A stretch of DNA of 64,000 nt, from positions 16,871,467 to 16,935,466 of the forward strand of contig CAIIXF020000002.1 in the NCBI GenBank assembly GCA_903813345.2, in the 5' to 3' direction. Below the pieces are notes generated by a model. It did not search any database. It worked only from the letters and a program-made list of their open reading frames with translations, and was not told where the DNA came from. Positions within the stretch are counted from its first letter, which is position 1; each line of letters starts with the position of its first letter. Shown here piece after piece: positions 5,247 through 50,170 of this stretch. The DNA is from Owenia fusiformis. Taxonomy: Eukaryota; Annelida; Polychaeta; Sabellida; Oweniidae. Position numbers and translations under genes: made by a program.

Positions 5247-5764
5247 TTAAACCTATACCTCTCTCCAAAACGCAATATGTGAACATAAATTATTTTTCCA
5301 TTTTCATACGACTGAAGGGATAATAAATGCTAAATAAATATAAATTTGACGTAGATATAAATGATTTTTAAGCGTAAAATCAAAGCATAACCATTAACTT
5401 AAAAAATTAAAAGAGATGTTGCCGGGATTCGAACCCAGATCATTATTGACAGGCGAGCACTCTGCCACTGTACTAACCAGGCATTGGTTATACATGGTTG
5501 TGATTTAAGGGAATTTATCTAAACTTCTTTTTAGTTAGTCACGTGACATTCAAAATTTAGAAATCTTCGAAGAAATTTGTTTACCGGCGAACCTCTGAGC
5601 AATTGAATGAACAATCGTCAAAATAACATCTTTATCGTGAGTATTTCTTCACAGTATTTGCTCCATTTGTTCATTATTGTATATTTTCTCATTAAAGCAC
5701 AAAATATTACCAGGGACCCTGGGAACAACCTAAGATTGCGTTTCAGAGAGAGGCCTGACTTTAA
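5247..5764 (-). mobile_element. TTAA-flanked miniature element carrying a tRNA-Asp-like module (copy 1)
   Basis: The ends are TTAAACCTATACCTCTCTCC (left) and the inverse of TTAAAGTCAGGCCTCTCTCT (right), followed inward on both sides by AAACGCAAT. Flanking TTAA on both sides fits the target duplication used by piggyBac and Kolobok transposons. Read on the minus strand the backbone is collinear with the copy at 22668-23163: start motif, CTTRGGTTGTT, a GAACAAATGG block, an ACGATAAA block, tRNA-like module, poly-T, and the end motif CATATTGCGTTTTGGAG. A GTCACGTGAC palindrome lies at about 5538-5547. There is no protein-coding capacity. Confidence 0.75.
5413..5484 (-). pseudogene. tRNA-Asp-like (GTC) sequence inside the TTAA element
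   Basis: On the minus strand the D-arm/A-box region (TGGTTAGTACAGTGGCAGAG), a CGCCTGTCAA anticodon region as in tRNA-Asp, and a B-box GGGTTCGAATCCC are readable. The anticodon stem (TCGCC against AATGA) and acceptor stem do not pair well, so it is unlikely to give a working tRNA. It probably keeps or once gave a Pol III internal promoter. Confidence 0.6.
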
Positions 5765-8700
5765 TTATGCTTGAAATCTAAAATTATGATTAAAGGTGTG
5801 TCATTTGTCCAAAAAATACAAAATTATGTATGAATCTGTTAACACCAAGTGATATAATAATGAAATATCAAGATCCAATACATTTTACTATTATTCTATC
5901 AAAACATTTTGATCTCATTGTTTTTAAAACCCTGGTGAGTGACCTACCATGTTTTCACAGCTTTGTTTTGGTAGCAATTTGATGTGCAGCCAAGATGACA
6001 ACTTGACAGTAGCAACCTTACCCTGCCTGATCCTTTGATAAGTTACACTTCCCTCTGACTGAGGTTTATAGATGATTTTACAGGTGTGAAGCTGATAATA
6101 TCATAGTTTATATGTGGAATGAAGGTTAAAGCCATTTTTATATGAGTCCTTTTATGAAATATTTGGAAGCATTGTAAATTGTCTTTATTAAATATTTCTC
6201 AAAGAAGGCAGCTATTCTAGCATTGGTTTTGTACATGTCATTTTGCATTTTGCTCTGAAAGTAAAAGATCAAATTTCTTGAAATTTTATATAAATTCAAG
6301 TATGACATATTATGTTCATGTCAATATATCTAGTATGGTTGTCATTTTGAAAAATGATGGCTGGCTCAGTCTTGTCTGACAAGATGTCCTTGGAGTTACC
6401 ATCATCTAGTTTTATGTGCTACAGATATGCTTAATTTTAGAAAAAAAAGTTTCAAGTTCAAGTTTAGTGCTTCAATAGGTTTATAAAGAGAAATAATCAA
6501 ATGCAGGGGTTTCACTAGAATATCTTATAACAGGGTTTAGATGAATGAAAACAACTGGCAAAGTTAATGGAAATCATAATTTTAACATCGAAAAGTTAAA
6601 AGGTACCTAAAAACAGCAGGCGATTTTATGAAAACAACTGGTGAAAATCGCCTGTTGCCTGCTTCTAATGAAACCCCCGAAAAGCATTTTATTTTGAAGA
6701 GTCAATCGATACCCTAATTGTAAAGGCTTGCCAATATCCATTTTCAATGATATACCTCTTGACTCTAATGCTATTGAAACAGAGTGGCCTGGTATACAAT
6801 GTTGATACCCTTGAAAGTTCCATTTTCAACTGTAAAAAGTTTCAACAAACTAAAGTACAATGATTTAGTTTAAGATTAAAGCTTATTGACTGTAGCTATA
6901 AAACTGAAAGGATTGTTAAGAGAAGTTACACTTTCATTCTTGAGGACTATTAATCATTTAACTAAATTTAAAAAAAAACTAAAAAATGTCATGTCATGTG
7001 TCAAAGTCATTCATGATGGTATTAATGTTTTAATGTATATATATTTTCAGTCTATTCATCTCAAGGATCACTTAGTTTCTTTCCTTTAGAATTCCTCATA
7101 ATTTAGCCTGAACTTTTGGCCTGAGATATTTTTCTTAATTTTCTAAAATGCTTGTATCTTTTAAGATATGTTTATTCCCACTGTTTTTTAGCAGATAAAT
7201 CCTCATTGGGATTCAATGCATGTTTCACCATGAAACATTCATGTATCTAAAATATTAACCCTCAACCTTTTGATATAAATCATGTTAAAATATATAGTAT
7301 TTCCTGGCAATATAAGGTTAACTGTTACTGAGATCAATGATGGAGAAAATTACTGAAATATAAATGGACCATTTGGTTCAACTTTACAAATGTATTGAAA
7401 CTAAGTGCAAAAAAGATAGTTCACATCTGTTTAAAAGTTCAGAATTTTTGAAAAATCACAAAAGACAGAGGAAACATAAAAATTGTTACTAGTTAATGAA
7501 TATAAAGCATAGGCTAGTTTTGTGAACAAATTAGAGTTGGGAGTTTAAAAAAACATAAGTGTCAAGATGATAGATGATTTTCAGAAAAAGGTCTAAAACC
7601 TGTGCAGTAATTTTTTACATTCTGACTTTAGATGTGTTGAAACTTGATATCACTGGTGTTTTCTGTAGATAACTTCCAGCAGGAATCAGATTTAAAAACA
7701 TATCCTATAACAAGGTATGGACTAGGGGATATAGGATTTCAAGCAAATATTTAGACTTGTACATAAACCTGTAAGCTGTTAACCAAGGTAGAGTCTGAAT
7801 CAGCACATACTTGTTGCAAGTTGCAAAGTGGAACACTTTCAACAAGTTGTACGTTTAATACTAGGATTGGGATCATAATCTTGGATAATCATTTTGGATC
7901 ATTGATGCTTTGGATCATAATCTTCCGAAAGTAACTTAAGATCAACATTTTGGGGATTAATGACCTTGGATAATCATTATACAGATAACTTCATGACATA
8001 GAAGAGTATTGGAGAGCAATATGTTAAACAACACAGTCAAGTCAAAAGTACAATATATCAACAATTATTGACATGCAAACCTAATCAAATTAAACTGTCA
8101 GAAATTACATAAGAATTTATTTAGCAATAAGTTTGCATAGAAGTATTTCCTGTCAACAACATGAGGAACAAAGACCTACATGTATATAACAACCAGGCTG
8201 TGGTGTGCTGAGTGAATCTTACCAAATCCCTAAATCGGAACCACTTGAGTTGAGAAACCATCTCCTAGAGTTAATGAATGTGAAATGACAAGTTTACAGG
8301 TTGTAAATCCATCATAGATTCATGATTCTTGGAAAACACTGCTGGGAAACCAACACGTAACACAGTTTTTGAAAACACTAAGATCCACGATTCATATAAA
8401 AACATCGAAAGAACACAATTATATAAAACATTGAAAGAATATTAGTCACAGTGCTAGTGCTAACAGAAACATGCCTTAGAAATGATCAGATGGTGAACTA
8501 GGAGTCAAGTTAAGACAAGTTAAGTGGCGGAGATCAGTTGTCTGAGAGGTTATTGTTTTGACTGATTGCCTTTCTCAATTCTACCACCTTTAATTATGCT
8601 CCATTAGCCTTGCATAGGGCCTACCGACATCAATATACATACATTATTCTGCCATCATTATTGAATAGTATACCTGTTAAAGGTTATTGACTCACCTGTG

Positions 8701-9900
8701 TAATCAAAGAATTATGTAATAATTCTGTAAATGATGAGCAAATATTAGTTTGCAAGGTCAGATTAACCTTATAAGGAATTTTTGGATATTTGACATTTCA
8801 GAAAATTTGTTTCAATTTGTAGACTGTTATATTTAGGAAAGTTGAGTAAATAACCAAAGCACTGACTGTTTACAAATAGCAATACCTCTGAGCTTTACCT
8901 GGAAATATTTTTGCACAAGCTTTAAAATCTCTAATCATAACTGATTGCAATAAGTATGTTGGATACTATAGAAGTTCATTTAAACTGATCAGATAAAGTT
9001 TTAGAATTTAAAATCAAATTGAAAAAATTGAAATATTTCCTGTTAGAGGTTGAGGGTAATTTCTGTGAGGTTTCTTCAAGGGAACAATTTCCTGAACCAA
9101 ATCCAAGTATTCATTGAAGGTATACATGCATAACACACTTCAACAGTAAATGAATAATTGGACATGTTGGCATCCATTCATCTGGTGTTATTATATATAT
9201 TGCAAACTACTCTGAGCACACGATCTACGACACGACACTCTGACAAAGATCATTCACTTTATTAACAAATGAGAAAATTACATTATATAGCCATACTAAT
9301 ATGCTAACATATACAGAGATCTGTCAATTTAAATGTTGACAGATTCTGTTTCGCTCTCCAAATTCAGAAGTTTATCAGTAGAGTGTGGATTGAGAGAACA
9401 AATGTAAAATAATCTTGAAAAGGGTGTTAAACTGGACTCAATGGTATGAAATGGAATGATTGTATACTGTAGTAACCAGTGTTATTTAGCCTGAGGAGTA
9501 GATGAGGGAAGCTATTATCACTTAGAAATAGTTGTAAATTTGACCAGTCAGTGACCATTCATGTCTGATTAAGTATGATTTCTATGATACCACTATCATA
9601 GAATAGAAGAAATGAACTTGCAGGTGTGTAAAGTACTGGATCAAACTTGGAAAGATAGCTGAACATTTGACCAGTCAGTGACCACTGACAACTGAGGTAT
9701 TTGTTTTTGGAGATCACTATCTTGTCACACTTCAGTATACTACTTGAGAAAGGAAGGAATAAACTTGAAAGTTGGTGGGTCACTGGGAAAAACATCTAGG
9801 CCTAAATCAGAGTGTGTCAAATAAGAGAGAGAAACTTGGCACTGAAGTCTTATGTTATTGCTTTATGGCACAGTTCATGGACTGAGTTTTTGGATTAAGT
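5765..9900. other. Non-genic interval upstream of the otopetrin gene
   Basis: Nothing coding is supported. A small TIR element lies at 6506-6677 (GGGGTTTCACTAG / CTAATGAAACCCC), with an inner hairpin CAGGCGATTTT / AAAATCGCCTG at 6617-6627 and 6644-6654. A decayed local duplication containing TTGACCAGTCAGTGACCA occurs at about 9550 and 9664. The promoter of the otopetrin gene presumably lies within the last few hundred bases, but I see no clear core element. Confidence 0.4.
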
Positions 9901-12900
9901 ATGGCTAACAACAAAGGATATGATGTTCTGACTAATGTATCAACACCTACACCAAGCCCTGCAATAGTTCATAGGGACCTTCCAACGCCACCTCCTCTTC
10001 CAAAGCCTTATCACTCAAAGGAAAATAGTCCCTTGCTGGACAACATCGACTCTAAACAAAATGCATCACCTAAAAGCATTGGGAGTAAATCGTTAAGTAG
10101 TCCTGGTCATTTACTGCGTAGTAATACAGCACTTAGTAAAGTATCTAGTGGGACCCAGACAAGTTCCGATAGCCTCTTTCTGGAAACGGATGAAGATAGC
10201 GGGAGTTTTGACGATGTTGATATGGGATGCAGACGCAGCCATTGTCTGAGCTCTGTGGAAAGTGCGTTAGATAAGATTGAGTAAGTCACCAAAAAATTCA
10301 AGTGTTTACTATGATGTGGTAGCATTCTGAGACTCATCAAATCTTTTGGTTTCACTAGAAACATTCTTAGACTGAAGAGAAATGAAATGTTATGGTTTAT
10401 TATGTCACCACCACAAGTGGTGACATATGGTTAGAGTTTCAAACTTTTTTGAGGGCTATGTTTGGCAGTTGATGTTTGGCATTCAATGGTTGGTGTTTGG
10501 CATTAAGCATCTGTAACAAATGACAGTGGTATTATTTTGTATGTTAATAATGCTTTGTCATGAAGTCGTGGTAGGGTGATAAAAACGTTATGTAACACCA
10601 GCATCTTCTGTTAAGTATTTAACCAAAAGATCTAAAGTCCTTATTGAAAATTATTGAAAACATGGAGAGATAATTTTATGTATGGAAATGATTTCTGTTC
10701 CAAATTAAGTATGATAAAGGAATTGTCCACCTTACCATTATTAAGGATGAGCAGGTGATGAAATGCCATTAAGGAAATATATTCAAGAGAATTTAATGAT
10801 CAAGTTGTGGATTATTCCATAGAATAGCAATGTTAACCTAAGTGTGGTCCTGGTTAGCACCCTTATAACAAAGAGAGCTCAGCAGTACCATATCATCCAC
10901 TGAGTACATTTAGGAATCAGATTTGCTGATGATCATGACCTCATAAAAGCTTCATGTTCACTTTGACAAATGATCATATGGAGATTTTGTAACTAAATGC
11001 TTCATGCTTTCTAATCACACTTCCATTTTCATGTCTCAAGTATACAAACATTTCAGTGTTTTTGGCCTATTTTATCGTACCTAACAAAAGGTACGATATT
11101 GTAGTCAGCTTGACGGGCGGCGGGCAAGCGGGCGGGCGGGCGGGCGGGCGGCGTCTCTCTTTTCAGCTTGTCTACAGGTTTCCAGCCAAACCATTTGAGG
11201 GATTCATCTGAAATTTACAGGGATGTTTCTACATATCAACGTCAAGAACTGATTAGTTTTTGGGCATTCTGGGTAAATCTTAAGGTGGCCATTTTGGATT
11301 TTCCATCATAAAATCGTCACTTTCAAGACTTGTCTACAGGTCCAGCCAAACCATTTGAGGGATTCATCTGAAATTTTCAGGGATGTTTCTACATATCAAC
11401 GTCAAGAACTTATTAGTTTTTGGGCATTCTGGGTAAATCTTAAGGTGGCCATTTTGGATTTTCCGTCCTAAAATCTTCACTTTCAAGACTTGTCTACAGG
11501 TTTCCAGCCAAACCATTTGAGGGATTCATCTGAAATTTTCAGGGATGTTTCTACATATCAACGTCAAGAACTGATTAGTTTTTGAGCATTCTGGGTAAAT
11601 CTTAAGGTGGCCATTTTGGATTTTCCGTCCTAAAATCTTCACTTTCAAGACTTGTCTACAGGTTTCCAGCCAAACCATTTGAGGGATTCATCTGAAATTT
11701 TCAGGGATGTTTCTACATACATGTATCAACGTCAAGAACTGATTAGTTTTTGGACATTCTGGGTAAATCTTAAGGTGGCCATTTTGGATTTTTCGTCCTA
11801 AAATCTTCACTTTCAAGACTTGTCTACAGGTTTCCAGCCAAACCGTTCAAAATTTTTACATATGTTACACAGTGATAAGTTCTAGAGCTGATTAACTCTT
11901 CTGCGGCCATCTTGCTTTCTTGGTCAACAAGACCACAATGCTGTGTTTTAGGTACGATATTGTTCACGTCTGTGCCTTGTTTAAGACAGAAACTAGTACT
12001 TAATTTTGACAAAACCTTTTAGAATTTAAACAACAAATTAAAATATTTACTTACCTCAAAATTAATTCTTGTGTATTTTCACTGTTTAGTAAAATTGCCT
12101 GAGGAATTCTGTGATTTGATTATGCTGTTTAGTTTATTAATTAATTAACACCATTCAACACTAATTGATAGTAATAACATAATTGATTTAACCTGACATA
12201 ATTATTCTACTAAATGATATGTTGGTGTGAAGGCTTGCAAATCTCTTGCTACTCCTGCTGATGATTTTATAGTTTTGATCAGAAGTTTTGGTGCATTGAT
12301 AAAATCATGGGCTTTCAACTAGATTGAAAGCCCATGATAAAATAAAAGAATATTTCTACAGGCCCGTAGCCAGGATTTGCCAAGGGGGGGGGTTCAGTTT
12401 TCAAAAATTTCCAGGGGGGGTTCACATTTGACAATTTTGGCCCAAATATGGCAGAAATCACTTGAGAAGTGCTCAAAATGATGAAAAACTGCATGATTTT
12501 GAAAGAATTTTTGGCCAGGAGGGGGGGGGGGGACGGGCTACGAGTCTATATAGATAATGTAATGTAATATTTGACTTTGGACCAGCCACATTTTTGTGAC
12601 AATTAACTATATAATAATGCTTATGATCTTAAATGATATCTTGGTCCAAGGATATTTCAATGCTTCCTTATAGCTGCTATAGCAGTGAAGCCCCATTCTG
12701 ATACTCGTAGCATCTTTCTGTTTCACCTGAAACATCAAGATTTGAGATGTCATGGTTTATAATGATGGTGAAGCCCTGTTTTGAAGGATGTCTCAGATGT
12801 GTCATACCAGGTCTTTTTCCCCTCTATATTTGAAAGGCAAGATCAAAGTTGTTTTCCAATTAAGGAACATTCTTTGTGAAGGATAGCAAAAAGGGTGTAT

Positions 12901-15900
12901 CTAGGTAAGCAAATCAAAAAGTTGATTTCCAAATATCAAATTCCTAGTGTAGGCTGTAATACTGCAGATAAAGCAGATCTGGTGTTTATATTTAAAGACC
13001 TGTCAATCTACCAACATCCAAACTAAACAATTTTGTTAAATTCTATCTCAAAGTTGAATGTTGTGATAGATTTTCTAATGATATCTGATCTTCATATAAT
13101 TTAAAGTGAAAAACTGCATCTTTATTTTTATTTTCTTTGTTTTTCTTATCCTTTGATAAATTTAAAGATAGAAGTAGTATTTTATTTTTAGGTATATCCC
13201 TTGTATTTTGACTTGAGATATAGAAGATACTATTATCACTTTAAGTTCATCATTTTGTTTATTTTAAATAAACAGAAGTTTTTAAACAGTCTATTGACAT
13301 GGATAAGATGGACCACCCATATTGATACAGTATAAGACACTTTTGACCTTTTTGAAAGAAGGTCAAATCTGAAGTCCGAGGTCACTCAGGTTAGATATGA
13401 ACTTTTTGCAACTTGAAATGAGAAAATTTTGAGTTTGCAGTTTTTGGCTCACACAGTAAGTCTATGGAATCGACCAGGCGTCCGTCCGTCCATTGGTCCC
13501 TCCGTCCATCCATCAACATTGGCCGCACAAATTAAAACTGCTATTCGGATTGAGTCATATCCACATTCATTTTATGCATATCCATAATGCCTATTGGACC
13601 TATCATCGCCATTTCCCAAGTTCGCCCGGTTTCCGAGAAATTGCGGATTTTGACGTCAAAAAGTCAAATTTTCTGTAAATACTAGACACTTTGTTGAAGT
13701 AGAACTTTCAAATAACTTTTTGTAGTTGCTGTCTATGCAACTTATGTCCTCTGAAAATTTCAAAGCTCTGGGAATTACAGTTTTTGGTGTTTACTCTATA
13801 AAATTTGACAAAAAGTAGGACTGTCATTTCAGGAAACTTTCTCATGTATAAAATTAATGGCAGGTTTTTTGATTGACAAGTTTCTCAAAGTTTGCCTTAT
13901 ACTTGATCATTTCTTGCAATTAATTACATCATTACTAGATTTAAACATTCCCTACATATTGCTCAATATATGTCAGCATCAAATTGAGATATTGAAGGTC
14001 AAAAAAAGGTCAAATAAGTTATTTTCAACTTGCTTGAATTTGACCAATTTTTTTTTGAAAATCATCTACAATATGCCAGGAGTTCAAATCTGACATTAGT
14101 GTTAGGATTTGACCTTTACTTGACCTTCAGTGACCTTCGAAAGATCAAAAAAGTTGATTTTTCAAATTGATTTTTGGTTATAAATTTTGGTCAGCTTAAT
14201 CACAAAATACCTTACTGAGGTTTAAATAAGTAAAATTTTCAAGGTCAAAGGTCATCAAACTAGGTCACACAACTGTTCTATCTAAGTTTCTCAAAGTTCG
14301 AGACTACAAATCCAAATCAGTATTTTTGTTTGAAAGTCAGGATATACATTCCTCTGAAGGTTCCAAACGGTTTGAGCACAGGACCGTGGGTCCTTCATTG
14401 TACACAAAATTGGTTAAAAGATATTTATAGGTAGCGTGTGTATTTAATCTTTACAGAAGTCCAGAAGAATATTTGAAAATGGTCAAAACAGGCTTTTGAC
14501 TTAATAAGATGACCTTGTCCATTTGACCTTTAGAAATTCAAGTAATCTACATTTGTAAACTTAAATATCAAATCTGATATTAGATATGAACTCTTGCAGA
14601 TAATTGACCTCTTGGCAATTTGAAAATTACATTTTTGATTGTTTTTGTTTTATCTCAAAATATGAACAGAAATTATCCAATTGTTGTCATTTACCTTTAT
14701 AAACTAAAACATTATTTGACCAAGATTTGGACAAAGCGTTATGAATGAATGTTAATAAATAAGTAAATAAATAATTAGAAAAATATTACACAAATTATTT
14801 TGCGATATCTGCGCAGCTGCTGTTTCTGTTTCATGAAAACCTAAATTTGAAAAACCAACTGTAGGTTGAGTTAATTTGGCCCGACTTAATTTTGTCATTT
14901 TTTGGCATATTGGCGGCTACTTAATTTGGCTTCTATAACACTGGAATAAAATACAAATTGTTACACCCATTTCTACAATTCAACTACTATATCTAGTAAT
15001 TTTTATTGGCTCACACAGTGAGCCTATGGGATTGACCAGGCGTCCGTCCGTTGGTCCGTCCGTTGGTCCGTCCGTTGGTCCGTCCGTTGGTCCGTCTGTT
15101 GGTCCGTCCGTCAACATTGGCCGCACAAATTAAAACTGCTATTCGGATTGAGTCATATCCACATTCATTTTATGCATATCCATAATGCCTATTTGACCTA
15201 TCATCGCCATTTCCCAAGTTCGCCCGGTTTCCGAGAAATTGCGGATTTTGACGTCAAAAAGTCAAATTTTCTGTAAAAACTAGACATTTTGTTGAAGTAG
15301 AACTTTCACGGTTTTGGTGTTTACTCTATAAAATTTGAAAAAAAGTAGGACTTAGTCATTTTCAGGAAACTTTCTCATGTATAAAGTCAATGGCAGGTTT
15401 TGTGATTGACAAGATTCTTAAAGTTTGCCTTATACTTGATCATTTCCTGCAATAAATTACATCATTAATAGATTTAAGCATTCCCTACATATTTCTCAAT
15501 ATATGTCAGCATCAAATTTTTACAGTTTTTGAGATATTTGACATCAAAAAACAGTAAAAATAAGTTATTTTTCAACTTGCTTCAATTTGACCAAATTTTT
15601 TTTGAAAATCATCTACAAGTTGCCAGGAGTTCAAATCTGACATTAGTTTTAGGATTTGACCTTTACTTGACCTTCAGTGACCTTCGAAAGGTCAAAAAAG
15701 TTGATTTTTCAAATTGATTTTTGGATGTAAATTTTGGTCAGCTTAATCACAAAAGACCTTACTGAGCTCTGAATAAGTAAAATTTTCAAGGTCAAAGGTC
15801 ATCAAACTAGGTCACACAACTATGCTATCTAAGTTTCTCAAAGTTCGAGACTACAAATCAAAATCAATATTTTTGTTTGAAAGTCAGGATATAAATTCCT

Positions 15901-18900
15901 CTGAAGGTTCCAAACTGTGTGAGCACAGGAGCGTGGGTCCTTCATTAATGCAACAATTCCCCTGAAACAATATAGAATTGGCATGTTCTGATTTATATCA
16001 TTCTTATCCTTTTCAGATTTGTTAAAAATGACTTTAACATACCAGACAAAATTCCCGGGGATCTTTTTTAAATTTTGGCGAAGATGTAAATTGGCGTTTT
16101 TTCTATTTCGCCAAATTAGAGTGGGTGCCAAATTTACCCAATCTACAGTTTTCAGAGATAGCTTCTTTAACCAAATGACTTCAGACCAACTGTATTCGCT
16201 GCTTTAATCAATATTGCAGACGCTTGGATGCAGATATTTGAATGCAATTTGTAAAAGAGAGTAGTATTATGTTATTTTATCAATTAGCTTGACATATCTT
16301 TCATCAAATATTCTGAATGTACCATTAACCATTGAATCATTTACCACATCTTTTTTTAACTGTAATGAAATATCCTGTCAGATCACTTCAAAGGCTAACT
16401 AGTTTGTTCAATTTAACTTCTTCTATAGCAACGGTTAAAAAAGTTGTTTAAAGCTATTGTCTTCCTAGGCTATATTGAAAACTGTTTCCTACAAAATACA
16501 AATCAATCGATATTGATGTCTGACTGACTGTGTTAATCTTTTCTCTCAAAGGGAATTTATTGGCAATTGTCCATGAAGCTAATAGTCTTATCTCAATTCT
16601 TTAAGAATTTCTCTTGAAGCCAGACAAAACTTAGATATCAGGATAGACTACATATAATTAAGTTTTATGTTAAGCAATGTTTTTGATGGAAGGTTGAGTG
16701 AGTGGTAGTGTGGAATCAGGATAGTTTGTTTAAAACTTATTTTCTTCTCAAAATTGTACATGTTTGATATATTTTTATTGCAATTTTAATATTTTTTTTA
16801 TATGATCTCACATTCTGAAAAATACTTGTCAATATGATTTTCCAAATAATTACTGAACCAAAACTAGGTGCAAGTCATTCAACTTTGAAATTGCAGTTGT
16901 TCCACATGTATGCTTGGCTGTTATTGCATTGAACAATCTCTAAGGTACTTATCCTCAATAGGATGTCATTGATATATGTTCTTGACTTCTGCTTCACCTA
17001 GCCTTGACTTGCAATTATCCAATATTCTTGAAGTTAGACTTTTGACATCAATATGTCTGTGCTCTTACAGTAGAATAAATTGTTTTGTTTTGGTCAGAGG
17101 CCGAGGCTTTTCATTTTGCTCAAATGTATCCCCACAAATTAATAATTCAGTTTAATCAAAGATATTTATTACCCCCAGCAAACCTAAGTGCCTAATTATA
17201 GTCAGATACTCTCTGAAGAAACTGAAATGATGGTCTAGCTAGTTATTGATGGATGAACCTATATTATTTCTCTGTTTCACTACCTTGAAACATTCATTAC
17301 TTATTACCTATAGTCAAATATCCCAGGGGTGTACTCCCATATATTGGTTATATGAGGATGTGCCGCTAAAGTAGGTAACTTTTCATTGAAAAATCCCTAG
17401 ATTTGGTGAGAAGAAAGAAATAATTGTGATTAGAAGAAATAATTGATATGGATTCCATTTTGACGAAAAAATCCCTAGTTCTTATGAAAATCCTTAAACT
17501 CGGTATTTTGTAGTGTTCATGAAAAAAACAGAAGTTAAGGTCTTGTTTTTGAAAAATTACCTCGAAGTGGGTCTATTTGGAAAAAAAACCCAAGATGTGG
17601 GTCCATTTTAGAGGAAAAAATCCCTAGATGTAGGTAGATATTTTGAATCTCAGCGGCTCCCCCTTGTCCTAAAAGTTGACCAGTACCCACCCCCCAAAAA
17701 AAATTGTTGGACAACAATTAACCAGAATATAATCCTTTTCAAAAAGTGTATTGATTTGAGGAACTTCATTTAGTTGACTTAGATTTTAGGCGTGTCTTTT
17801 AACCTCTTGACTCCCAGGTTCTAAAATTGGGTTGAAACCAGGGAATTTTTCATTTTTGCCAGCCTTTGACATTTTGCTACATGCATACACAACAGGTGAT
17901 GCTCAATCTAGTGAGATTAGTCAGCAGAGATCATTTCTACATATTTTAAAACATTTTTGGTGTAAATTGGATGAAAATTGTCAAAATTAGAGCAATTTTA
18001 GTGAAAAATGTTGTGACGGATTTTCTCGTCACTCTGGGTTTCAAGGTCATTTCCAAGGTGACGAGAAATTTCGTCACTCTGGGTAGTCAAGAATATGTTC
18101 TCTTCATTTTCAAGTTAACCTCATACATTGAGGCAACATGCAATATTAGACAGCAAACAAATTGCATTACCAGGTCAGCATATCAGAATCTCTTTGTAAG
18201 TAAAACACTAACCACAGCAAGAATCAATATGTGGAACTGCCTACATATGGATAGGATACTAACACTCTTGCAATTGTGTTTGATTAAATCATGCCTATTT
18301 TATACTTTTTATATCTATTATCTGAATAATCTTAAATGTTCAAATAATTAAGAGTGTCAACTGCATATGTGCTCACGTTATTCCTTGCTGATTCCACTCA
18401 TTTTACTGTATTTTCTTTTTGAAATATGGCCAAATGTTTTTTTAATAGGTAAAGATGTACATATGGCGATCAGAGATAAGAAATTACCAGGTTTCTTTAA
18501 GATGTTATTTCTCAAGTAAAAAACAGCCAACTGTCACTTACATGTCACAAATCAAGCAGATTTTCAATATATTTTAGAAACATATGCTTGCAAGAGAAGG
18601 CAGGCATCCTTTAACCAGATCTGTTGTCTCCAAATATAAAAATGCTGGCCTGGCCTCCCAGGGTTGTGTTAGGGTAGAGTTAACATTATGGGATACCTGG
18701 AGTAGACTATTTTGAAAAATATGCAGATTTGCAACTTTTTGGGGAATAGATTTTTTATCAAACCCTGTATGCACCCCACCCCTTATATCTTCACTCTTTA
18801 GCTAGCAGTCAAACCTGTATAGGTATACTATGTTTACAGGGTGTCAAATAAATGTTCTCCCCTCCTTAGCTTTAACATCCACATAATATTAGATAACTTT

Positions 18901-21900
18901 TTTCTTTACATGATATCTGAATTGTTCTTTAGCACATCATAACAGGGCTACTAAGAGCAACTCCACAAGAAGTTTCAGATAACTAGCTCAACTAGATGCA
19001 CTTTATGCACAAAAGTTCATTCTCTTGAAATTAAAGGGGAGAACATATTTATTTGACGCCCTGTAGTATATATCAAAGTTAAGAGAATAGAAATAAGAGG
19101 TGTTCATACATATTTTACTGAACCTGATATGGTTCTGATTACTCGAGGAGAAACATGTTTTGCTTCATCGTGTCCCTTTGTTTATCCGAATTGAAAGCAA
19201 TCCCATGATTCAGTTCTTTGATAAATGATTTATAAGCAGAATGGGAATAACTCTATTAATGATTCACAAAAATAACACTGTCCAGAATATTAACTGAATT
19301 ATTCTCTGTGTTATCAATCAATTTGATAATCAAATTTGAATAAGGGGTATATATACATGTATTTATAATATGCTTGAGTTCGGTTTTTGGTTATGTTTTG
19401 CATATTTTAAAGGTTTAGCGTACATGTACATTGAACACTTTTTCGCCAAGAAAGAATAGTCAATTTTGGTAGGTGTTTACTACAGAGAGGGCAATTTATA
19501 CAGATGTCAGTAGAGTATGTGCAGAGGAAGGGTGTTAACTTGGGAGAGGTGTTCACTATAGAGAGGGCAATTTATACAGATATCAGTAGAGTATATGCAG
19601 AGGAAGGGTGTTTACTTGGGAGAGGTGTTTACTGTAACTGAGGTTTTACTGTGCTTTATTTGAATAAAATATAATCCGTGGGTCAGAAAACAACCATCAG
19701 TAAAAATTCTGCCTTTCATTTCATTTCTTTCAACCCATTTCAGCTACTTTTTGAATCAATAAACATCTATTCAGCATTAAAACTGCAAAGTTATCTTCCT
19801 AGATAACTCTGGTTAACAGTATGAATCCCATCGTGAGATATCACAGCCTTCTCTCAGTTTCCTTCTAGAATGCCGTGAGTTACTTGGCAATAGCCTTCGA
19901 TCTGATGGGGGCGTGGCCCGTCCAGATTTCAGCAAAAGTGATATGACGAATCAAATCCGTATTTACAGGTCACGTGACAGTGAGTGGCGGGGGTAAGAAC
20001 TCAACCAATCAGATCGCTCAGTTTCAAAACAATTGCGTTAAATTACACAACACATTTATATTGTATAGGTGGTCTTGTGGTAGAATTCTCGCTAAGCACA
20101 CTGTAGGCCCGAGGTCGAATCCCGCCTTCGCCTTTTTATTTTTTTTAACTAAATGATTGTTCTTTGATATTACGCAGAGAAAAAACAATTTTCATTTACA
20201 TAAACTTTATATTAGAGCTTGAAAATGTAAAAACAATATATGTCAACATATTGCGTTTTGGAGCGATGTGCACTTTGTGCAGGTTTAAAGTTTTTGATCA
20301 CGTACCCTTCCCTTTTGGCATTTGCGCTATATTCAAGAGAAGTGTATACCATTGATAGAAAATAAACAGGGTGTATTCCTTAGTACTAAAACTGGAAGCG
20401 GGAAGAGTTTGTGCTACCACGATGATCCCCATTTTGATACTCAGACCATCTCTGCTATGCACAAGAAGGAAACTGAGAGAAGGCTGTGATATCTCACGAT
20501 CGATGATCCCGGAAGTGTTAGAAAGATAGACCGAAAGATAATGGTAACTTGTTAAATACACGTTCAAATCGATGGAAAACGTACTAGGTATCGACTTCTT
20601 GTGTAGAAAATGAGATAAAGACGTGATGTGAGTAGATATTTACCCCTCGAGGATCACGGGTTAGAAATCTTTAAAAGTGAAAAAAATATGTAGGTCATGT
20701 CGGACGTCATTTTCGTTTCATAAATTCAACTTCAAATAAGTCGGGTTTAAACGCATGGATTGCCAAGAAACTCGAATATATATAACTTTGAAGCACCATG
20801 GTTGTAGTGAACTACAAATCATGTATAACATCGTGGGGAAAAGGTATATTTTCTTATTTTAGAAATTCATCAACTGTGATTGGTTAGAATTCTGACGTCA
20901 TTAATATCATTATAAATCTAGGCCCCGCCCATTCGATCGGCAATCAGTGCAAAGTATATCAGAGCATTCTTGTGCATAGCAGAGATGGTCTGAGTATCAG
21001 AATGTATGAATCCTAGCCAGAGGGTAGTTACCCCTTCTAGCCTCTAGGCTATGTAAGATACTACTCCTCAAACTTTGGATTGACTCAGAAAAAGTAGCTT
21101 AAACTACTCCCAAGGGTACTTGAAGGAATGAATTCTACAAAGATCAATATTCAATTTCATGAAATGACTTGATATATGACAGAATGACATTATAATTGTA
21201 TAATCCTGTAAACAAAGTAACATTTTTGAAATGCAAAAATGATGTAAAAAATAGTAGAATCAGCAAGAAATAAAATGATTAAGCAACAGGCACGAAGTAA
21301 ATATTCTAAATAGCGATGTGAGAAAATCAGATTCTGTAATAGAAAATTTGAGTGAAATACGCATAGAATAAGAGAAATAGCAGAACTTTAGACTAATACG
21401 TCTAAAACTTGATATTGAGCAGCCAAAGGGCCAAACCATTGCTGGTTTGCTATAGATAGACTTAAATTGACACTCCTGACAAAAATAAAAGATAAAAGTG
21501 TTAGTGCAACTGTCTTAGGCTGATCTCTTGCTCTGAGCTATATTCAGAATAAACAAAGGGTAACATTTTAAAGTAAAATACAATTCATTGCGATATTGCC
21601 AAAACATCAGAGAAAGCACAAGCATAATTTAAGATTGGCATTATGTTAATTGAATAAGATTCATTACAAATTCATATGTAAATTGGATTATATTAATTAG
21701 CATATCACTGGACAAAGTCATAATCATATTATCCCTTAATAAAATAATTGTAATTTTGACATACCATATGATGTTGATGAAATGGGAGTCTAAAGTGTAG
21801 GATGTCCAAGTAGAAATTAGCTTGATAATTATGATTCTACCTTAGAATAAAAGCAATGGATGCTAGGCTGACATTAATTCCTAATTAGTTGGGAATCCAT

Positions 21901-24900
21901 AGTGATAGAGAAGCCTAATAGAAAAACTATAGCAATTTCACTGACTCATTCCCCTGGAGACAAATAGTATCACTAGGGGGCATGTTAAAGAATTTAATAT
22001 AGAGTGTCAAAGAGTGGAATCAGCAAGGAATAAACTTAACAGCAACTAAGTGAACTTTCAAAATGTAATGGAAATAGTGAGAAAGTGTGATACCATGGTC
22101 CTTATTATAAAGAGAAATGAGGTTGAATAGGCATTAATTATCAGAGAGAAAAGAAATGATTTGGAAATTTTATCCAAGGAGGAAATAATATGACCTCTTA
22201 TACATCAATTAATTTTCTCATCTCACAACAAACAGAAATTGGTTGAAGTCATTTCTCTCGCTTTAATTTTCCCTTTCAAATGTTACTGAATTTTGAGATT
22301 TCCATGCTAGTTTTCTCCATTGCTCAAGTTAGTTGTAACTATGGTATCAACTAAAATAAAGTCAGAGAGAGTTGTTCTATTCAGAGAGGTGTTCACTCAT
22401 ACAGGCTTTATGTCACCACCACAAGTGTTGGGCATTCAGCATCTGTAACAAATGGCAGGTGGTGACATTTTGCACGTTAGTACCTTGTATCGTACTGCAA
22501 TACTGAAGAATTTAGGTTTGATTTGTCTTAATGCCAGTATTTTAACACACCTGTGCATGACAGCATTTCACTAACATTCTGTATATAACCGAGGGATTGT
22601 AGTGGGAGAAACAGATGTTGTTAAAATACAAGTACATCCAAAATACTACATGAGATATGTAAAGAGCTTAAAGCTGGACTACGCTCCGAAACGCAATCTT
22701 GGGTTGTTTCGGGGGTGAACTTTATCATTTTGAGCTTAATGAAAGATTATAGAATGATGAACAAATGGGGCAAATCTTGTGTAGAAATACTTACGATAAA
22801 TGTGTCATTTCAAAGATTTTTCATTGATTTGCTTCGATCGGAGCCGGCGATATGATTTTGGAAAGGTTTCTAAATGAAGAACGTGACGTCACTTCCGAAT
22901 CATAGCATTCAAAATAAGTAGCGTTTAATTACCTCAACCATTCATAATAATACGGTGGTGTAGCGGTAGAATCCTCGCAGAGCACGCGGGAGGCACGGGT
23001 TCAAATCCCGCATCCGTCTTTTTATTTTTTTAACTAAATGATTGTTCTTTGATATTACGCAGAAAAAAACAATTTTTAATTACATAAACTTTATATTAGA
23101 GCTTGAAAATGTAAAAACAATATATGTCAACATATTGCGTTTTGGAGCGATGTGCAGGTTTAAAAATCTCATTAAGCCACGGTAATATTCCTCAAATATT
23201 CCTCATTGAATAACATTTTTGTTCAGTGATATCTGGCCTTAACTGTTTTTGTGTTTTTTTAATCAAATATGGTTAAATTATATCTAAGCATGGGATATGG
23301 TGAAGTCAGAATGAAATATGGATTCTGTATCCCATGACATGAAAATAAGGATGTATTTATGCTTCATGTATGGGTAAAGATTTCTCTATAATTGAAGAAT
23401 CAAATATGAATGTTTTTCTATAATGAAGGTGTGTTAAAATATAAGTGAACCACTCAAAAATAAATAATTAAACAGCTAAACAATTTATTTTCAGATGGGT
23501 TCCTTCGGTCAATCAGAAAACTCCTACCTCCACTTTGAAGAATTCTCCACATAGCATCAGTGCTGTTCAGTCACCCGTTAGCCCAGGGTCTGTGTCTCAG
23601 ACAGTGTTCCTCCCCCCAGTACCACCCCAACCCTCAAGGCATAGTATCATCAGCCATAATAGTACAACAGGGCGATATGAGACCGTTATCGTGGAAGATG
23701 AAATGGATTTGGTTCCAAATGGTGATTCGGGTACGTCAAGTAGGTAGTATTAGATATGCATGTTATATGCATGATATTTATAGACTAGGAAACCAAATTA
23801 CATCAAAAGGAAAGATTGAAGATCATTGAACAATGATACTTTCTAGAATTACAATCATCACCCTCGCTACAATAAAACAGTACAATTGTGTTTGTTGTTT
23901 TATCTCATTAATGTCACCACCACAAGTGATGACATATTGTTATAGTCTCCAACTATTTTGTGGACAGAGACCACCAAATGGTGTTCGAAGTTCAGCATTC
24001 AGAGGTTGCTGTCTGTAACATGGTTGGTGGTTACATTTTGCATGTTATGCCTTGTCTAAATCTGTCCATTTGTGTGATATAAGGGGACTTAAAACAAAGA
24101 ATTAACTTCATATTGGCCTTACTTTATCAACCAAGCGAATTCCCATATACTAAAACAAATAGAACACAGATGATAAAAAACATAAAACATAAAAGAAGCA
24201 ATAAAACCTAGGAGAACAATACTTGAATGAGATTTATGATAATACTGGATTGACATGGTAACCAAATCCAAGGCCATTTTATCGTTCCTTTGTCTATAAA
24301 TATATATTTATGGAATAGACTTGGCAGAATTCCATTGGAGGATTCTCTGCATCTGAAATGCAGATGCCATTATTCTGTAGATTAATCTCCGCTTTAATGT
24401 GATGTTTTAGTAAAAAAATTCACACCGTTCTTAAGAAAGGGGTCAGAATGATTCTAGATGTGATATATCTATTGGTCTCCAAAGTCTTGTTATTTTATAT
24501 CATACTACATGTATGATCAGCTTGAAAAAGAATATTGTTCAATTATTTGCAAAATTGAAACATTTCAAACATGCACGTTATATATTTAAAGTAATGAATT
24601 ATTTTACATATATCATATATTTATATCATTTACTATTTTCAAATCTATGCAATAGTATTAATTATTTCAGCTTCAATTTGATTTTTCCTTACAGGCATTA
24701 GCAACAATGAGAGTCCTGACAACATAAGTGCCCTAGAGCAGCCTGTTATCCAGTTCCCTCCCCCACCCCCTCAAGTGAATGGTGGACACAGAGTACAGCA
24801 TCATACTGACCCCCATACACAGAGGGAACAGTTCAGGTAGGTCTATATTGGCCCTCAGTCCCCACTCCTTCAGCTCCCAGAGACCATGTCCCAACATTAT

Positions 24901-39723: not shown

Positions 39724-39760
<37 letters not shown>
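39724..39760. repeat. 37-base guanine run
   Basis: An uninterrupted G tract precedes the inner element. Length is likely unreliable in assembly, and the tract could form quadruplex structure. Confidence 0.9.
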
Positions 39761-39830: not shown

Positions 39831-42290
39831 GCAACGTTAAATATGGAACGTTGTAGGTACAGGAAGGTGTGGACTCGCACAGATGTTTAAAGAACGTTAC
39901 ATTTGACTTAAATATCACGTGTCAGGAACGTAGTAGCGACCTTAACAATTACGTCGCCAAAATAACGAAACTGTAACGTTCTTACATTACGTCATATATA
40001 CGTGGCCAATCTAAATTTCTGGTAACGTTGATATGGAACGTTGTAGGTACAGGAAGGTGTGGACTCGCACAGATGTTTAAAGAACGTTACATTTGACTTA
40101 AATATCACGTGTCAGGAACGTAGTAGCGACCTTAACAATTACGTCGCCAAAATAACGAAACTGTAACGTTCTTACATTACGTCATATATACGTGGCCAAT
40201 CTAAATTTCTGGTAACGTTGATATGGAACGTTGTAGGTACAGGGAGGTGTGGACTCGCATAGATGTTTAAAGAACGTTACATTTGACTTAAATATCACGT
40301 GTCAGGAACGTAGTAGCGACCTTAACAATTAGGTCACCAAAATAACGAAAATGTAACGTACTTACATTACGTCATAAATACGTGGCCAATCTAAATTTCT
40401 GGTAACGTTGATATGGAACGTTGTAGGTACAGGAAGGTGTGGACTCACACAGATGTTTAAAGAACGTTACATTTGACTTACATATCACGTGTCAGGAACG
40501 TAGTAGCGACCTTAACAATAACGTTGCCAAAATAACGAAACTGTAACGTACTTACATTACGTCATATACGTGGCCAATCTAAATTTCTGGTAACGTTGAT
40601 ATGGAACGTTGTAGGTACAGGAAGGTGTGGACTCGCATAGATGTTTAAAGAACGTTACATTTGACTTAAATATCACATGTCAGGAACGTAGTAGCGACCT
40701 TAACAATTACGTCACCAAAATAACGAAAATGTAACGTACTTACATTACGTCATAAATACGTGGCCAATCTAAATTTCTGGTAACGTTGATATGGAACGTT
40801 GTAGGTACAGGAAGGTGTGGACTCGCACAGATGTTTAAAGAACGTTACATTTGACTTAAATATCACGTGCCAGGAACGTAGAACCAACCTAAACGATGAC
40901 TTCGCCAAAATAACGAAAATGTAACGTACTTACATTACGTCATAAATACGTGGCCAATCTAAATTTCTGGTAACGTTGATATGGAACGTTGTAGGTACAG
41001 GAAGGTGTGGACTCGCGGAGATGTTTAAAGAACGTTACATTTGACTTAAATATCACGTGTCAGGAACGTAGTAGCGACCTTAACAATTACGTCGCCAAAA
41101 TAACGAAACTGTAACGTACTTACATTACGTCATATATACGTGGCCAATCTAAATTTCTGGTAACGTTGATATGGAACGTTGTAGGTACAGGAAGGTGTGG
41201 ACTCGCATAGATGTTTAAAGAACGTTACATTTGACTTAAATATCACGTGTCAGGAACGTAGTAGAAACCTTAACAATTACGTCACCAAAATAACGAAAAT
41301 GTAACGTACTCACATTACGTCATATATACGTGGCCAATCTAAATTTCTGGTAACGTTGATATGGAACGTTGTAGGTACAGGAAGGTGTGGACTCGCACAG
41401 ATGTTTAAAGAACGTTACATTTGACTTAAATATCACGTGCCAGGAACGTGGAACCAACCTAGACGATGACTTCGCCAAAATAACGAAAATGTAACGTACT
41501 TACATTACGTCATAAATACGTGGCCAATCTAAATTTCTGATACGTTAATTATGGAACGTTGTAGGTACAGGAAGTTGTGGACTCGCACAGATGTTCAAAG
41601 AACGTTACATTTGACTTAAATATCACGTGCCAGGAACGTAGAACCAACCTAAACGATAACTTCGCAAAAATAACGAGACTGTAATGTGCTTATGCAACGT
41701 CACATATACGTGGCCAGTTTTAAGTTCTGGTACGTTAATAATGGAACGTTGTAGGTACAGGAAGGTGTGGACTCGCACAGATGTTTAAAGAACGTTACAT
41801 TTGACTTAAATATTACGTGCCAGGAATGTAGAACCAACCTTAACAATGACTTCGCAAAAATAGTGAAACTGTAATGTGCTTATGCAACGTAACATATACC
41901 TGGCCAGTTTAAAGTTCTGGTAACGTTTGTCTTGGACCGATGTAGGCACAGGAAGGTCTGGACTCGCACAGATGTTTATACAACGTTACATTTTACTTAA
42001 ATATCATGTGCTAGGAATGTAGTAGCAACCTTAACAATGACTGCAAAAATAAAATAACAGACTGTAACCTGCTAATGCAACGTCACATATACGTGGCCAA
42101 GTTAAAGTTCTGGTAACATTAACTATAGAACGTTGTAAGCAAAGGAAAGTGTGGACACGCATAAATGAGTATACAAGTTACGTTCGACTTAGATATCACG
42201 AGCCAGGAATGTAGTACCAACCTTAACAACGACTTTGCCAAAATAAAGAGACTGTAACGTGCTTGTTACAAACATGTCAAATTCATAACT
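39831..42290 (+). repeat. 190-bp satellite array, about 13 units, rich in AACGTT
   Basis: The unit begins GGTAACGTTGATATGGAACG and contains ATTACGTCATATATACGTGG. The phrase ATATGGAACG recurs at 39841, 40031, 40221, 40411, 40599, 40789, 40979, 41169 and 41359, then with increasing divergence to about 42290. Variants ACCAACC at units 6 and 9 and GTCACC at units 5 and 8 suggest a three-unit higher-order repeat in the middle. Confidence 0.92.
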
Positions 42291-48119: not shown

Positions 48120-50170
48120 AACGAATTTGTTGAGACCACAACGTCTTTGTCACGTTCTTTTTCACATACATGTATATGTATTTTTCACGTTTAAACCCCG
48201 TTTCGTCAACGTCAAAATTAACTGTTTCGACAACGTTGCAAATAAACCAATTTCGTGAGGACATAGCGTCTTTTTGTAACGTTTCCTGCACTTACAAATA
48301 TTTTTTTACATTTCAATTGAAAACACGTTTCGACAACGTTGAAATTAACCGTTTGCACTACGTTGAAAATGAACCATTTTGGTCAGAAAATGACGTCTTT
48401 GTAACGTGTGTTACAATTACAAATATTTTTCACATTCAAACCATGTTTTGACAACGTTACAATTAGCCATTTTCACTACGTGGCAAATGAACCAATTTGG
48501 TGGGAAAACAAGGACTTTGTAACGTTTCCTAGACTTACAATTATCTTTCACATTTAAAACACATTACGACAACGTCAAATTTTACTGTTTATATTACGTA
48601 GCAAATGTAACAATTTGGTGAGAACTGCAACGTCTTTGTAACGTTTTCTACACTTACAAATATCTTTCACATTTAAAACACGTACGTTACGACAACGTCA
48701 AATTTTACCGTTTACATTACGTAGCAAATGTACCAAATTTGGTGAGAACGCAACGTCTTTGTAACGTTTTTTACACTTACAAATATCTTTCACATTTAGA
48801 ACACGTTACGACGACATCAAATTTTACCGTTTATATTACGTAGCAAATGAAACAATTTGGTGAGAAGTGCAACGTCTTTGTAACGTTTTCTACACTTACA
48901 AATATCTTTCACATTTAAAACACGTTACGACAACGTCAAATTTTACCGTTTACATTACGTAGCAAATGTACCAAATTTGGTGAGAACACAACGTCTTTGT
49001 AACGTTTTTTACACTTACAAATATCTTTCACATTTAGAACACGTTACGACAACATCAAATTTTACCGTTTATATTACGTAGCAAATGAAACAATTTGGTG
49101 AGAAGTGCAACGTCTTTGTAACGTTTTCTACACTTACAAATATCTTTCACGTTTAAAACACGTTACGACAACGTCAAATTTTACCGTTTACATTACGTAG
49201 CAAATGTACCAAATTTGGTGAGAACACAACGTCTTTGTAACGTTTTCTACACTTACAAATATCTTTCACATTTAAAACACGTTACGACAACGTCAAATTT
49301 TACCGTTTATATTACGTAGCAAATGAAACAATTTGGGGAGAACTGCAACGTCTTTGTAATGTTTCCTGCACTTACAAATATTTTACACATTTAAAAAACG
49401 TTACGACAACGTTAAATTTTACCGTTTATATTACGTAGCAAATGAAACAATTTGGTGAGAAGTGCAACGTCTTTGTAACGTTTTTTACACTTACAAATAT
49501 CTTTCACGTTTAAAACACGTTACGACAACGTCAAATTTTACCGTTTACATTACGTAGCAAATGTACCAAATTTGGTTAGAACACAACGTCTTTGTAACGT
49601 TTTCTACACTTACAAATATCTTTCACATTTAAAACACGTTACGACAACGTCAAATTTTACCGTTTATATTACGTAGCAAATGAAACAATTTGATGAGAAG
49701 TGCAACGTCTTTGTAACGTTCTCTACACTTACAAATATCTTTCACGTTTAAAACACGTTACGACAACGTCAAATTTTACCGTTTACATTACGTAGCAAAT
49801 GTACCAAATTTGGTGAGAACACAACGTCTTTGTAACGTTTTCTACACTTACAAATATCTTTCACATTTAAAACACGTTTCGACAACGTCAAATTTTACCG
49901 TTTATATTACGTAGCAAATGAAACAATTTGGTGAGAACTGCAACGTCTTTGTAATGTTTCCTGCACTTACAAATATTTTACACATTTAAAAAACGTTACG
50001 ACAACGTTAAATTTTACCGTTTATATTACGTTGCAAATGAACCAAACTGGTAAAAATTCAACGTCATTGTTACGTTTTTCACACCAGCACAAATTTCGAA
50101 CTTTACTAACACATTACTACAACGTCATTTTTTAACCATCCACCGACGTTTTGCTGAATGTCACAATTTT
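48120..50170 (+). repeat. 119-bp satellite array, about 17 units, with five-unit higher-order repeat
   Basis: The unit contains AACGTCTTTGTAACGTTTTC, TTTACACTTACAAATATC-type phrases, ACGACAACGTCAAATTTTAC and TTACGTAGCAAATG. AACG starts fall at 48871, 48990, 49109, 49228, 49347, 49466, 49585, 49704, 49823 and 49942, a constant 119-bp step. Two monomer types alternate (GAAGTGC and GAACAC forms). A third form (TAATGTTTCCTGCAC) occurs at 49347 and 49942, exactly 595 bp apart. Confidence 0.92.

What the first reader, a model, noticed from the sequence alone, without database searches (positions are those of the whole stretch)
5247..23163. Miniature transposon family with TTAA borders that carries exchangeable tRNA modules
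Seen: 5247-5764 (minus) and 22668-23163 (plus) share TIRs (TTAAASCTG..., AAACGCAAT), TTAA at all four borders, and a collinear body, yet one carries a tRNA-Asp-like and the other a tRNA-Gly-like module at the same place and in the same orientation. A third partial copy (20067-20288) also has a Gly-like module. Known: TTAA targets belong to piggyBac and Kolobok DNA transposons, while tRNA-derived Pol III modules belong to SINEs. Inference: a DNA-transposon vehicle has captured, and perhaps swapped, tRNA promoters. This would be a transcribed MITE or MITE/SINE hybrid not covered by the usual classes.
Basis: partly seen in the sequence, partly recalled or inferred. Interest (0 to 1): 0.78.

Follow-up and report, generated by a model that had tools for sequence, protein, structure and literature searches.

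The report
Jumping DNA with hypermutable tRNA module
A short cut-and-paste DNA transposon in this 498-Mb genome carries a tRNA-derived RNA polymerase III gene, and in most sampled groups of its copies that gene and the 22 bases before it have changed several-fold faster than the rest of the element, as if each inserted copy were transcribed and mutated in the germline.

Summary
The TIR/TTAA element is real: a MITE family with 307 exact 3' ends genome-wide, control 0. TTAA is a target duplication; one copy sits in a tandem repeat whose other units are empty sites matching 84/84. "Exchangeable tRNA modules" is not supported: modules fit one tRNA-Gly(GCC) origin, with one Gly subgroup slightly closer to a recalled tRNA-Pro. 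The unexpected feature is a bounded mutation hotspot. In 37 near-identical copies the body departs from consensus at 0.85% of sites, the module at 5.0%, the 21 bp upstream at 12.8%; an unsupervised scan places the segment from -22 to the base before TTTTT. It recurs in a second Gly group, in Asp-type copies, and in 12 loci where the MITE was copied inside another repeat, so MITE transposition does not cause it; the oldest group shows it weakly. Best reading: germline Pol III transcription-associated mutagenesis at each insertion (0.75). Against: no RNA data, a mixed control in real tRNA arrays, undecided promoter-dead copies. New variant of known kinds; interest 0.72.

The parts
5247..5764 (-). 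'Asp-type' MITE copy including the two TTAA target copies
5414..5482 (-). tRNA-Gly-derived module of the Asp-type copy (anticodon GTC); A box about 5465-5476, B box 5425-5435
   Evidence: origin from the subfamily consensus; box limits by eye
5483..5504 (-). 22 bp upstream of the module in the Asp-type copy
   Evidence: rate from the subfamily alignment
22668..23163 (+). Gly-type MITE copy including the two TTAA target copies; 98% to the cluster consensus
22672..22701 (+). 5' terminal inverted repeat
23130..23159 (-). 3' terminal inverted repeat
22932..22953 (+). 22-bp upstream hot zone, start of the hypermutable segment
22954..23018 (+). tRNA-Gly-derived Pol III module; A box 22956-22966, B box 22998-23008
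23019..23023 (+). TTTTT, putative Pol III terminator; the hypermutable segment of the Gly cluster stops before it
20023..20288 (+). partial Gly-type copy: upstream part, module and 3' end; no 5' TIR, 9-bp insertion near the 3' end

Best explanation
The element is a non-autonomous TTAA-targeting DNA transposon (MITE, about 500 bp) that once captured a tRNA-Gly gene as a complete Pol III unit: A box, B box, TTTTT terminator and its own upstream sequence. Each insertion therefore carries a ready-made Pol III gene. (Shown) In four of five sets of copies clearly, and in the fifth weakly, the stretch from about -22 to the terminator has accumulated substitutions several-fold faster than the rest of the same element; in the best set the B box is near background and the A box in between. 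(Inferred) The cause is transcription-associated mutagenesis by Pol III in the germline: DNA opened at initiation and during transcription mutates often, and the factor-bound B box is shielded or selectively kept. (Inferred) The fast local clock scrambled the tRNA body between subfamilies and made one ancestral tRNA-Gly module look like different isotypes. The conserved boxes suggest that promoter function was kept in the lineages that spread.
For: 37 copies of one body cluster: body 113/13263 (0.85%), upstream 21 columns 99/773 (12.8%), module 66 columns 122/2440 (5.0%). Parsimony events per column 3.14 upstream, 1.51 module, 0.28 body. The 16 of the 37 that were picked by their 3' end only: body 57/5709, upstream 57/352, module 59/1039. 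Unsupervised scan: columns 266-352, ending at the base before TTTTT; log-likelihood gain 167.5 against a maximum of 45.1 in 100 column shuffles. Just outside: columns 245-265 8/776, 353-365 3/479. Pairs identical over 360 body sites differ at 7/86 and 9/87 in the segment. Second Gly group (15 copies): upstream 35/330, module 36/932, body 47/5276; gain 51.6 against a maximum of 20.5 in 60 shuffles. Asp (17 copies): -22..-1 81/351, module 159/1141, body 105/3492 and 86/2218. MITEs embedded in another repeat (12 loci): upstream 25/245, module 27/657 against 70/5698 in their body and carrier flanks, Fisher 2e-15. B box 5/407, A box 16/407, other module sites 101/1589. Changes per copy Poisson-like (mean 6.05, variance 5.46), at least 3 in each of the 37. 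Literature: active snRNA and tRNA genes up to tenfold hypermutable (passage in PMC13083260, citing Seplyarskiy 2023); high transcription-associated mutagenesis in immediate tRNA flanks (passage in PMC8113476, citing Thornlow 2018).
Against: No RNA data; transcription is inferred. Real tRNA arrays of the same genome are mixed: -22..-1 exceeds the next upstream stretch in Lys C8 and Lys C7, equals it in Gly C6, and is lower in Gly C2 and Gly C7 (ungapped comparison, concerted evolution). Copies without a B box do not decide: L177 0/22 upstream (but its 5' body is also clean, 0/173), L193 2/22, L103 4/21, L081 6/16; L177 and L193 came from a search biased to clean upstreams. An upstream strand asymmetry (T>C 27/258, A>G 4/295, p 2.6e-6) did not replicate significantly (7/140, 4/223, p 0.11). 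The third subfamily gives only a weak, wider segment (ratio 2.6). In the Asp set the raised rate starts further upstream (-45..-23 48/378) and the T-run is raised too (12/101). In the carrier set the best-scoring segment stops near the anticodon. At module sites where the consensus differs from tRNA-Gly, 22 of 40 changes go towards tRNA-Gly; 19 of these 22 are at two columns, 313 and 314, and may be older states shared by copies rather than new events.
Confidence: 0.75

Rival explanations
1. Mutations are made when the MITE transposes (error-prone repair or replication around an R-loop), not afterwards.
For: Each of the 37 cluster copies has at least 3 changes in the segment, and their number does not track body changes (Spearman -0.04).
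Against: In 12 loci a 5'-deleted MITE sits inside a larger repeat with shared flanks on both sides, so it was copied as a passenger; the segment is still hot (52/902 against 70/5698). Absence of a correlation is also expected if the copies have one age (body counts mean 3.05, variance 2.32).
Confidence: 0.07
2. The module is repeatedly replaced or converted from other tRNA-like sequences (true module exchange).
For: Some variants are shared haplotypes among copies with near-identical bodies (L020, L062, L108). At module sites where the consensus differs from tRNA-Gly, 22 of 40 changes go towards tRNA-Gly, though 19 of the 22 are in two columns. One Gly subgroup's consensus scores slightly higher with a recalled tRNA-Pro than with tRNA-Gly (35.9 against 32.1).
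Against: The hottest part is the non-tRNA upstream stretch. Most events are on terminal branches (86 of 98 in the module, 54 of 69 upstream). 47 of 87 classified module changes move away from tRNA-Gly. The Gly C3, Gly C4, Asp-type and third-type consensus modules and the partial copy align best to tRNA-Gly.
Confidence: 0.08
3. Diversifying selection, for example escape from small-RNA silencing of the transcript, drives the variation.
For: In the Gly cluster the excess is confined to the putative transcript and its start region.
Against: Changes are mostly on terminal branches and the upstream bases are the most variable; a passive MITE copy has no obvious way to be selected for them (inference).
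Confidence: 0.05
4. The segment mutates fast because of its sequence, or because bound proteins block repair, without transcription.
For: The limits fit a TFIIIB/TFIIIC-bound gene as well as a transcribed one; two real tRNA-Gly arrays show no raised -22..-1 rate.
Against: Different upstream sequences in Gly and Asp subfamilies are both hot, so one sequence motif is unlikely; the B box, recalled as the strongest TFIIIC contact, is the coldest part of the module.
Confidence: 0.12
5. The element is a SINE that acquired inverted ends by accident.
For: It has a tRNA-derived module with A and B boxes and a T-run.
Against: Ends are TIRs at TTAA duplications with an empty site matching 84/84; internally deleted copies L082 and L079 keep both ends, as cut-and-paste elements do; no tail at the 3' ends seen.
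Confidence: 0.01

Closest known systems
MER6/MER6A, a Tc1/Mariner MITE carrying a V-SINE (PMC6887750; abstract and part 1 of 2 of the discussion read)
   Same: A MITE whose interior derives from a SINE and which spread by DNA transposition.
   Different: MER6 has Tc1/Mariner ends and a V-SINE fragment; here the target is TTAA, the module looks like a complete Pol III unit, and it shows a mutational footprint. Nothing of that kind was in the parts read.
CMITE of Acropora corals (PMC2872659; abstract, section (i) of the discussion and passages read)
   Same: TTAA MITEs with an internal region of unknown origin.
   Different: About 100 bp, CC[C/T]T ends, internal region more conserved than the TIRs; 'tRNA', 'promoter' and 'polymerase III' do not occur in its main text. 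Here the internal module is less conserved than the rest.
Kolobok transposons and T2-MITEs (PMC9587614, PMC6004289; passages read)
   Same: TTAA duplication; 5' terminus AG, as in the Xenopus Kolobok TIRs.
   Different: Kolobok ends are 5'-RR...YY-3'; here 5'-AG...GT-3'. No Kolobok transposase was looked for in G000.
Pol III transcription-associated mutagenesis at tRNA and snRNA genes (Thornlow 2018 and Seplyarskiy 2023, not held; seen only as cited in passages of PMC8113476 and PMC13083260)
   Same: Several-fold higher mutation at Pol III genes or their immediate flanks.
   Different: There it is described for host genes, where selection holds the tRNA body; here it would be seen across many presumably unselected copies of a transposon.

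Membership tests
MITE | short, many homogeneous copies with TIRs and a fixed target duplication | tested here: met
   about 500 bp; 307 exact 3' ends; 39 listed copies at 96-97%; TIRs; TTAA duplication
piggyBac | TTAA target duplication | tested here: met
   L010 empty site 84/84; weaker: L016 88% over 78, L085 86% over 84
piggyBac | CC[C/T]T termini (as stated in PMC2872659) | tested here: not met
   termini read AG.. and ..AGGT
piggyBac | autonomous partner with DDE_Tnp_1_7 transposase and the same ends | tested here: inconclusive
   12 regions cut around piggyBac transposase matches (113 match rows) hold no copy of the TIR; the other matches were not fetched
Kolobok | TTAA target duplication | tested here: met
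Kolobok | 5'-RR...YY-3' termini (as stated in PMC9587614) | tested here: not met
   5' AG fits, 3' GT does not
Kolobok | Kolobok transposase with the same ends | not tested
   no search made
SINE | tRNA-derived part with A and B boxes | tested here: met
SINE | retroposed 3' tail and no TIRs | tested here: not met
   TIRs and TTAA borders
Pol III gene with transcription-associated mutagenesis | raised substitution rate at the gene and its immediate 5' flank | tested here: met
   limits sharp in the Gly groups, less so in the Asp, carrier and third sets
Pol III gene with transcription-associated mutagenesis | germline Pol III transcription | not testable with these tools
   no expression data held
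Pol III gene with transcription-associated mutagenesis | loss of the effect when the promoter is lost | tested here: inconclusive
   four copies without a B box: upstream 0/22, 2/22, 4/21, 6/16; two of them from a biased search

The most novel reading that the evidence does not exclude
A DNA transposon family has spread hundreds of germline-active Pol III genes whose own transcription mutates them roughly 3 to 16 times faster than the DNA around them, so that each insertion becomes a private, self-diversifying small-RNA gene and a mobile mutation hotspot; the cold B box is then a mutational footprint of TFIIIC in the germline.
Probability: 0.4. Interest if true: 0.85.

Novelty: new variant of a known kind. 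Interest (0 to 1): 0.72.

Why it matters
Mutation inside real tRNA genes is hidden by purifying selection. This family offers many presumably unselected, near-identical Pol III units with a built-in control (the rest of the element), so the base-level profile of Pol III mutagenesis could be read directly, including which parts (initiation zone, A box, B box, terminator) are exposed. It also suggests that MITE insertions are transcribed in the germline, and it warns that tRNA isotype labels of SINE- or MITE-borne modules can be products of mutation.

Tried and rejected
Module swap between isotypes: not supported when compared with the genome's own tRNA genes. Real tRNA-Pro genes exist (8 matches) but were not used in the scoring.

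Autonomous partner: 12 piggyBac transposase regions lack the TIR. Two 5'/3' end pairs about 1.8 and 2.0 kb apart were looked at: L210 is two neighbouring MITE copies; L208 has the first 123 bp of the MITE and then other sequence, of which about 1.4 kb was read; its ORFs were read by eye, no family search. No partner found; absence not shown.

Empty site of the carrier repeat: no match with up to 3 mismatches.

Positive control in real tRNA arrays: mixed. Promoter-dead copies as negative control: too few. Strand asymmetry: not replicated. ARAGORN found a tRNA in 1 of 59 copies (L050) and Rfam tRNA passed its gathering score in 1 of the 17 loci given, so the modules do not look like working tRNAs. 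Rfam on the window: nothing at gathering; at E up to 10, 12 matches, each below its gathering score, the best mir-1277 at E 0.0045. No eukaryote collection is held, so relatives in other species were not looked for.

Rows dropped or regions left out before counts: of 58 full-length Gly-type copies, 37 formed the analysed cluster, 8 another and 13 were single. 'Body' leaves out the first 20 and last 18 of 498 columns and the few columns beside the segment; the scan covered columns 11-485. Over all 58 copies smaller peaks of diversity also lie at columns 1-20 and 161-190 (0.12 and 0.08-0.10, against up to 0.22 in the segment). In one search, 16 rows were given but L119 contributed no bases (15 copies); L209 (17 segment and 18 body changes) was kept; 14 of the 15 came from the 5' end pattern (15 loci cut, L208 dropped) and L085 from the 3' end set; 6 of the 14 are places already fetched as L069, L072, L073, L076, L091, L112, so this set overlaps the 8-copy group but not the 37. 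The replicate asymmetry used 15 plus 11 copies (L079 left out). The Asp set was the window copy plus the 16 other full-length loci of the 20 fetched; the third set 8 of the 19 fetched.
Full report
What is there. The window lies at G000:C2:16871467-16935466 in a genome of 498 Mb and 525 contigs; no organism was identified (that it is an animal is my guess). They are collinear (67% over 528 columns), with TIRs and TTAA borders. A search with the Gly-type copy lists 40 matches, the cap: itself and 39 others at 96-97%, 38 over the full length and one lacking 3 bases. The Asp-type copy has 16 other full-length relatives at 85-91% and, below them, a third subfamily at 73-76%. The exact 3' end pattern occurs 307 times, 0 in the reversed control; a strict 5' end pattern 131 times, control 0.

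TTAA is a target duplication. In L010 the copy sits in a tandem repeat; its joined flanks with a single TTAA match another unit of that repeat at 84/84. Two weaker paralogous empty sites are L016 against L176 (88% over 78) and L085 against the window at 2599-2682 (86% over 84). Of 141 copies examined, 73 had both termini recognised; 56 of the 73 read TTAA on both sides, and at least 7 of the other 17 are artefacts of the search expression on Asp-type ends. Internally deleted copies keep both ends (L082, L079). The termini are AG...GT, which fit neither the CC[C/T]T hallmark of piggyBac (PMC2872659, discussion section (i)) nor the RR...YY rule of Kolobok (PMC9587614, passages). The superfamily is left open.

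One tRNA-Gly origin. Gly C3, Gly C4, the Asp-type and the third-type modules and the partial copy at 20067 score best with tRNA-Gly(GCC). The Asp-type consensus scores 30.9 with tRNA-Gly and 18.7 with the genome's tRNA-Asp. One Gly subgroup (C1) scores slightly higher with a recalled tRNA-Pro (35.9 against 32.1). The B box GGTTCGAATCC is identical in the Gly C4, Asp-type and third-type consensus although those modules agree at only 45/74, 49/79 and 52/77 alignment columns. The modules do not look like working tRNAs.

The hot segment. Copies were taken from the BLAST listing (20 of the 39 other rows, fetched) and, to avoid bias, as 60 of the 307 3'-end matches, chosen from the 100 that were listed. 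Of the 60, 37 are full or nearly full length, 12 lie in a carrier repeat and 11 are partial or internally deleted. Of 58 full-length Gly-type copies, 37 form one body cluster. There the body departs from consensus at 113/13263 sites, the upstream stretch at 99/773 and the module at 122/2440. A scan that knows nothing of the module finds columns 266-352, from -22 to the base before TTTTT, with a gain of 167.5 against at most 45.1 in 100 column shuffles. Immediately outside, the rate is background: 8/776 before, 3/479 after. Within, the B box has 5/407, the A box 16/407, the other module sites 101/1589. Parsimony on a tree gives 3.14, 1.51 and 0.28 events per column for upstream, module and body, mostly on terminal branches. 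Pairs with identical bodies over 360 sites differ at 7/86 and 9/87 in the segment. The 16 copies of the cluster chosen by 3' end alone give upstream 57/352, module 59/1039 and body 57/5709. A search with the 87-base consensus that ends in the upstream stretch listed 40 of 485 candidates, 2 of them identical over all 87 bases.

Replication. A second Gly group, defined by a 5' TIR variant (15 copies), gives 35/330 upstream, 36/932 module and 47/5276 body; gain 51.6 against at most 20.5 in 60 shuffles. The Asp-type set (17 copies) gives 81/351 at -22..-1, 159/1141 in the module, 105/3492 and 86/2218 in the two body parts, B box 7/180; its raised zone reaches further upstream (48/378 at -45..-23) and includes the T-run (12/101). 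The third subfamily (8 copies) gives a weak, wide segment, ratio 2.6.

A natural experiment. In 12 of the 60 loci a 5'-deleted MITE sits inside a larger repeat: 188 bp of 5' flank and 50 bp of 3' flank are shared. These MITEs were copied as passengers. Flanks and MITE body differ from consensus at 70/5698 sites, the upstream stretch at 25/245 and the module at 27/657; hot against cold, Fisher p 2e-15. So the excess need not come from MITE transposition. L079, one of the 12, has lost the module and contributes flank and body only. In this set the best-scoring segment of the scan stops near the anticodon (11 copies).

Mechanism. A start at the initiation zone and a stop at the terminator in the Gly groups, independence from transposition, Poisson-like counts and presence in subfamilies with different upstream sequence point to Pol III transcription-associated mutagenesis after insertion. 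[quoted passage not shown] the two original papers are not held. Shown here: the segment, its limits, its recurrence. Inferred: transcription, germline activity, and shielding of or selection on the B box.

Against it. No expression data exist here. In real tRNA arrays of the genome the -22..-1 stretch exceeds the next upstream stretch in Lys C8 and Lys C7, equals it in Gly C6 and is lower in Gly C2 and Gly C7. Four copies without a B box do not decide (0/22, 2/22, 4/21, 6/16). A strand asymmetry seen first did not replicate. Of 40 module changes at sites where the consensus differs from tRNA-Gly, 22 go towards tRNA-Gly; 19 of these lie in columns 313 and 314.

Novelty. MITE/SINE chimeras are known (MER6, PMC6887750). 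Searches for a TTAA MITE with a Pol III module, or for Pol III mutagenesis in SINEs or MITEs, showed no such report in their listings (the last showing 15 of 53 papers; open-licence papers only). I therefore call it a new variant of known kinds.

Noticed in passing
39833-42264, 48311-50078, 58006-60093, 11167-11844: Long tandem arrays with periods 190, 119, 58 and 162 bp; a run of 37 G lies just before the first, at 39724-39760.
   Followed up: no
L064, L066, L074, L079, L080, L087, L093, L100, L101, L104, L106, L111: An unclassified carrier repeat with CCCTTCGACC motifs that holds a 5'-deleted MITE and has spread it as a passenger; no empty carrier site was found.
   Followed up: partly
57803-57813 (-): An isolated exact AAACGCAATCT; the family shows no BLAST match there, so probably chance.
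   Followed up: partly
G000:C4:7364227-7412404: 18 tRNA-Asp(GTC) pattern matches in about 48 kb; two copies (L125, L131) share changes in the D arm and anticodon stem.
   Followed up: no
G000:C2:29323057-29327418: tRNA-Gly(GCC) genes partly in units of about 150 bp; some tRNA-Gly genes called by ARAGORN in the fetched loci carry short insertions.
   Followed up: no
L186, L187, L188, L189, L190, L194: Six copies share an extra G in the D loop and the same two upstream changes: probably one sub-lineage of the Gly type.
   Followed up: no
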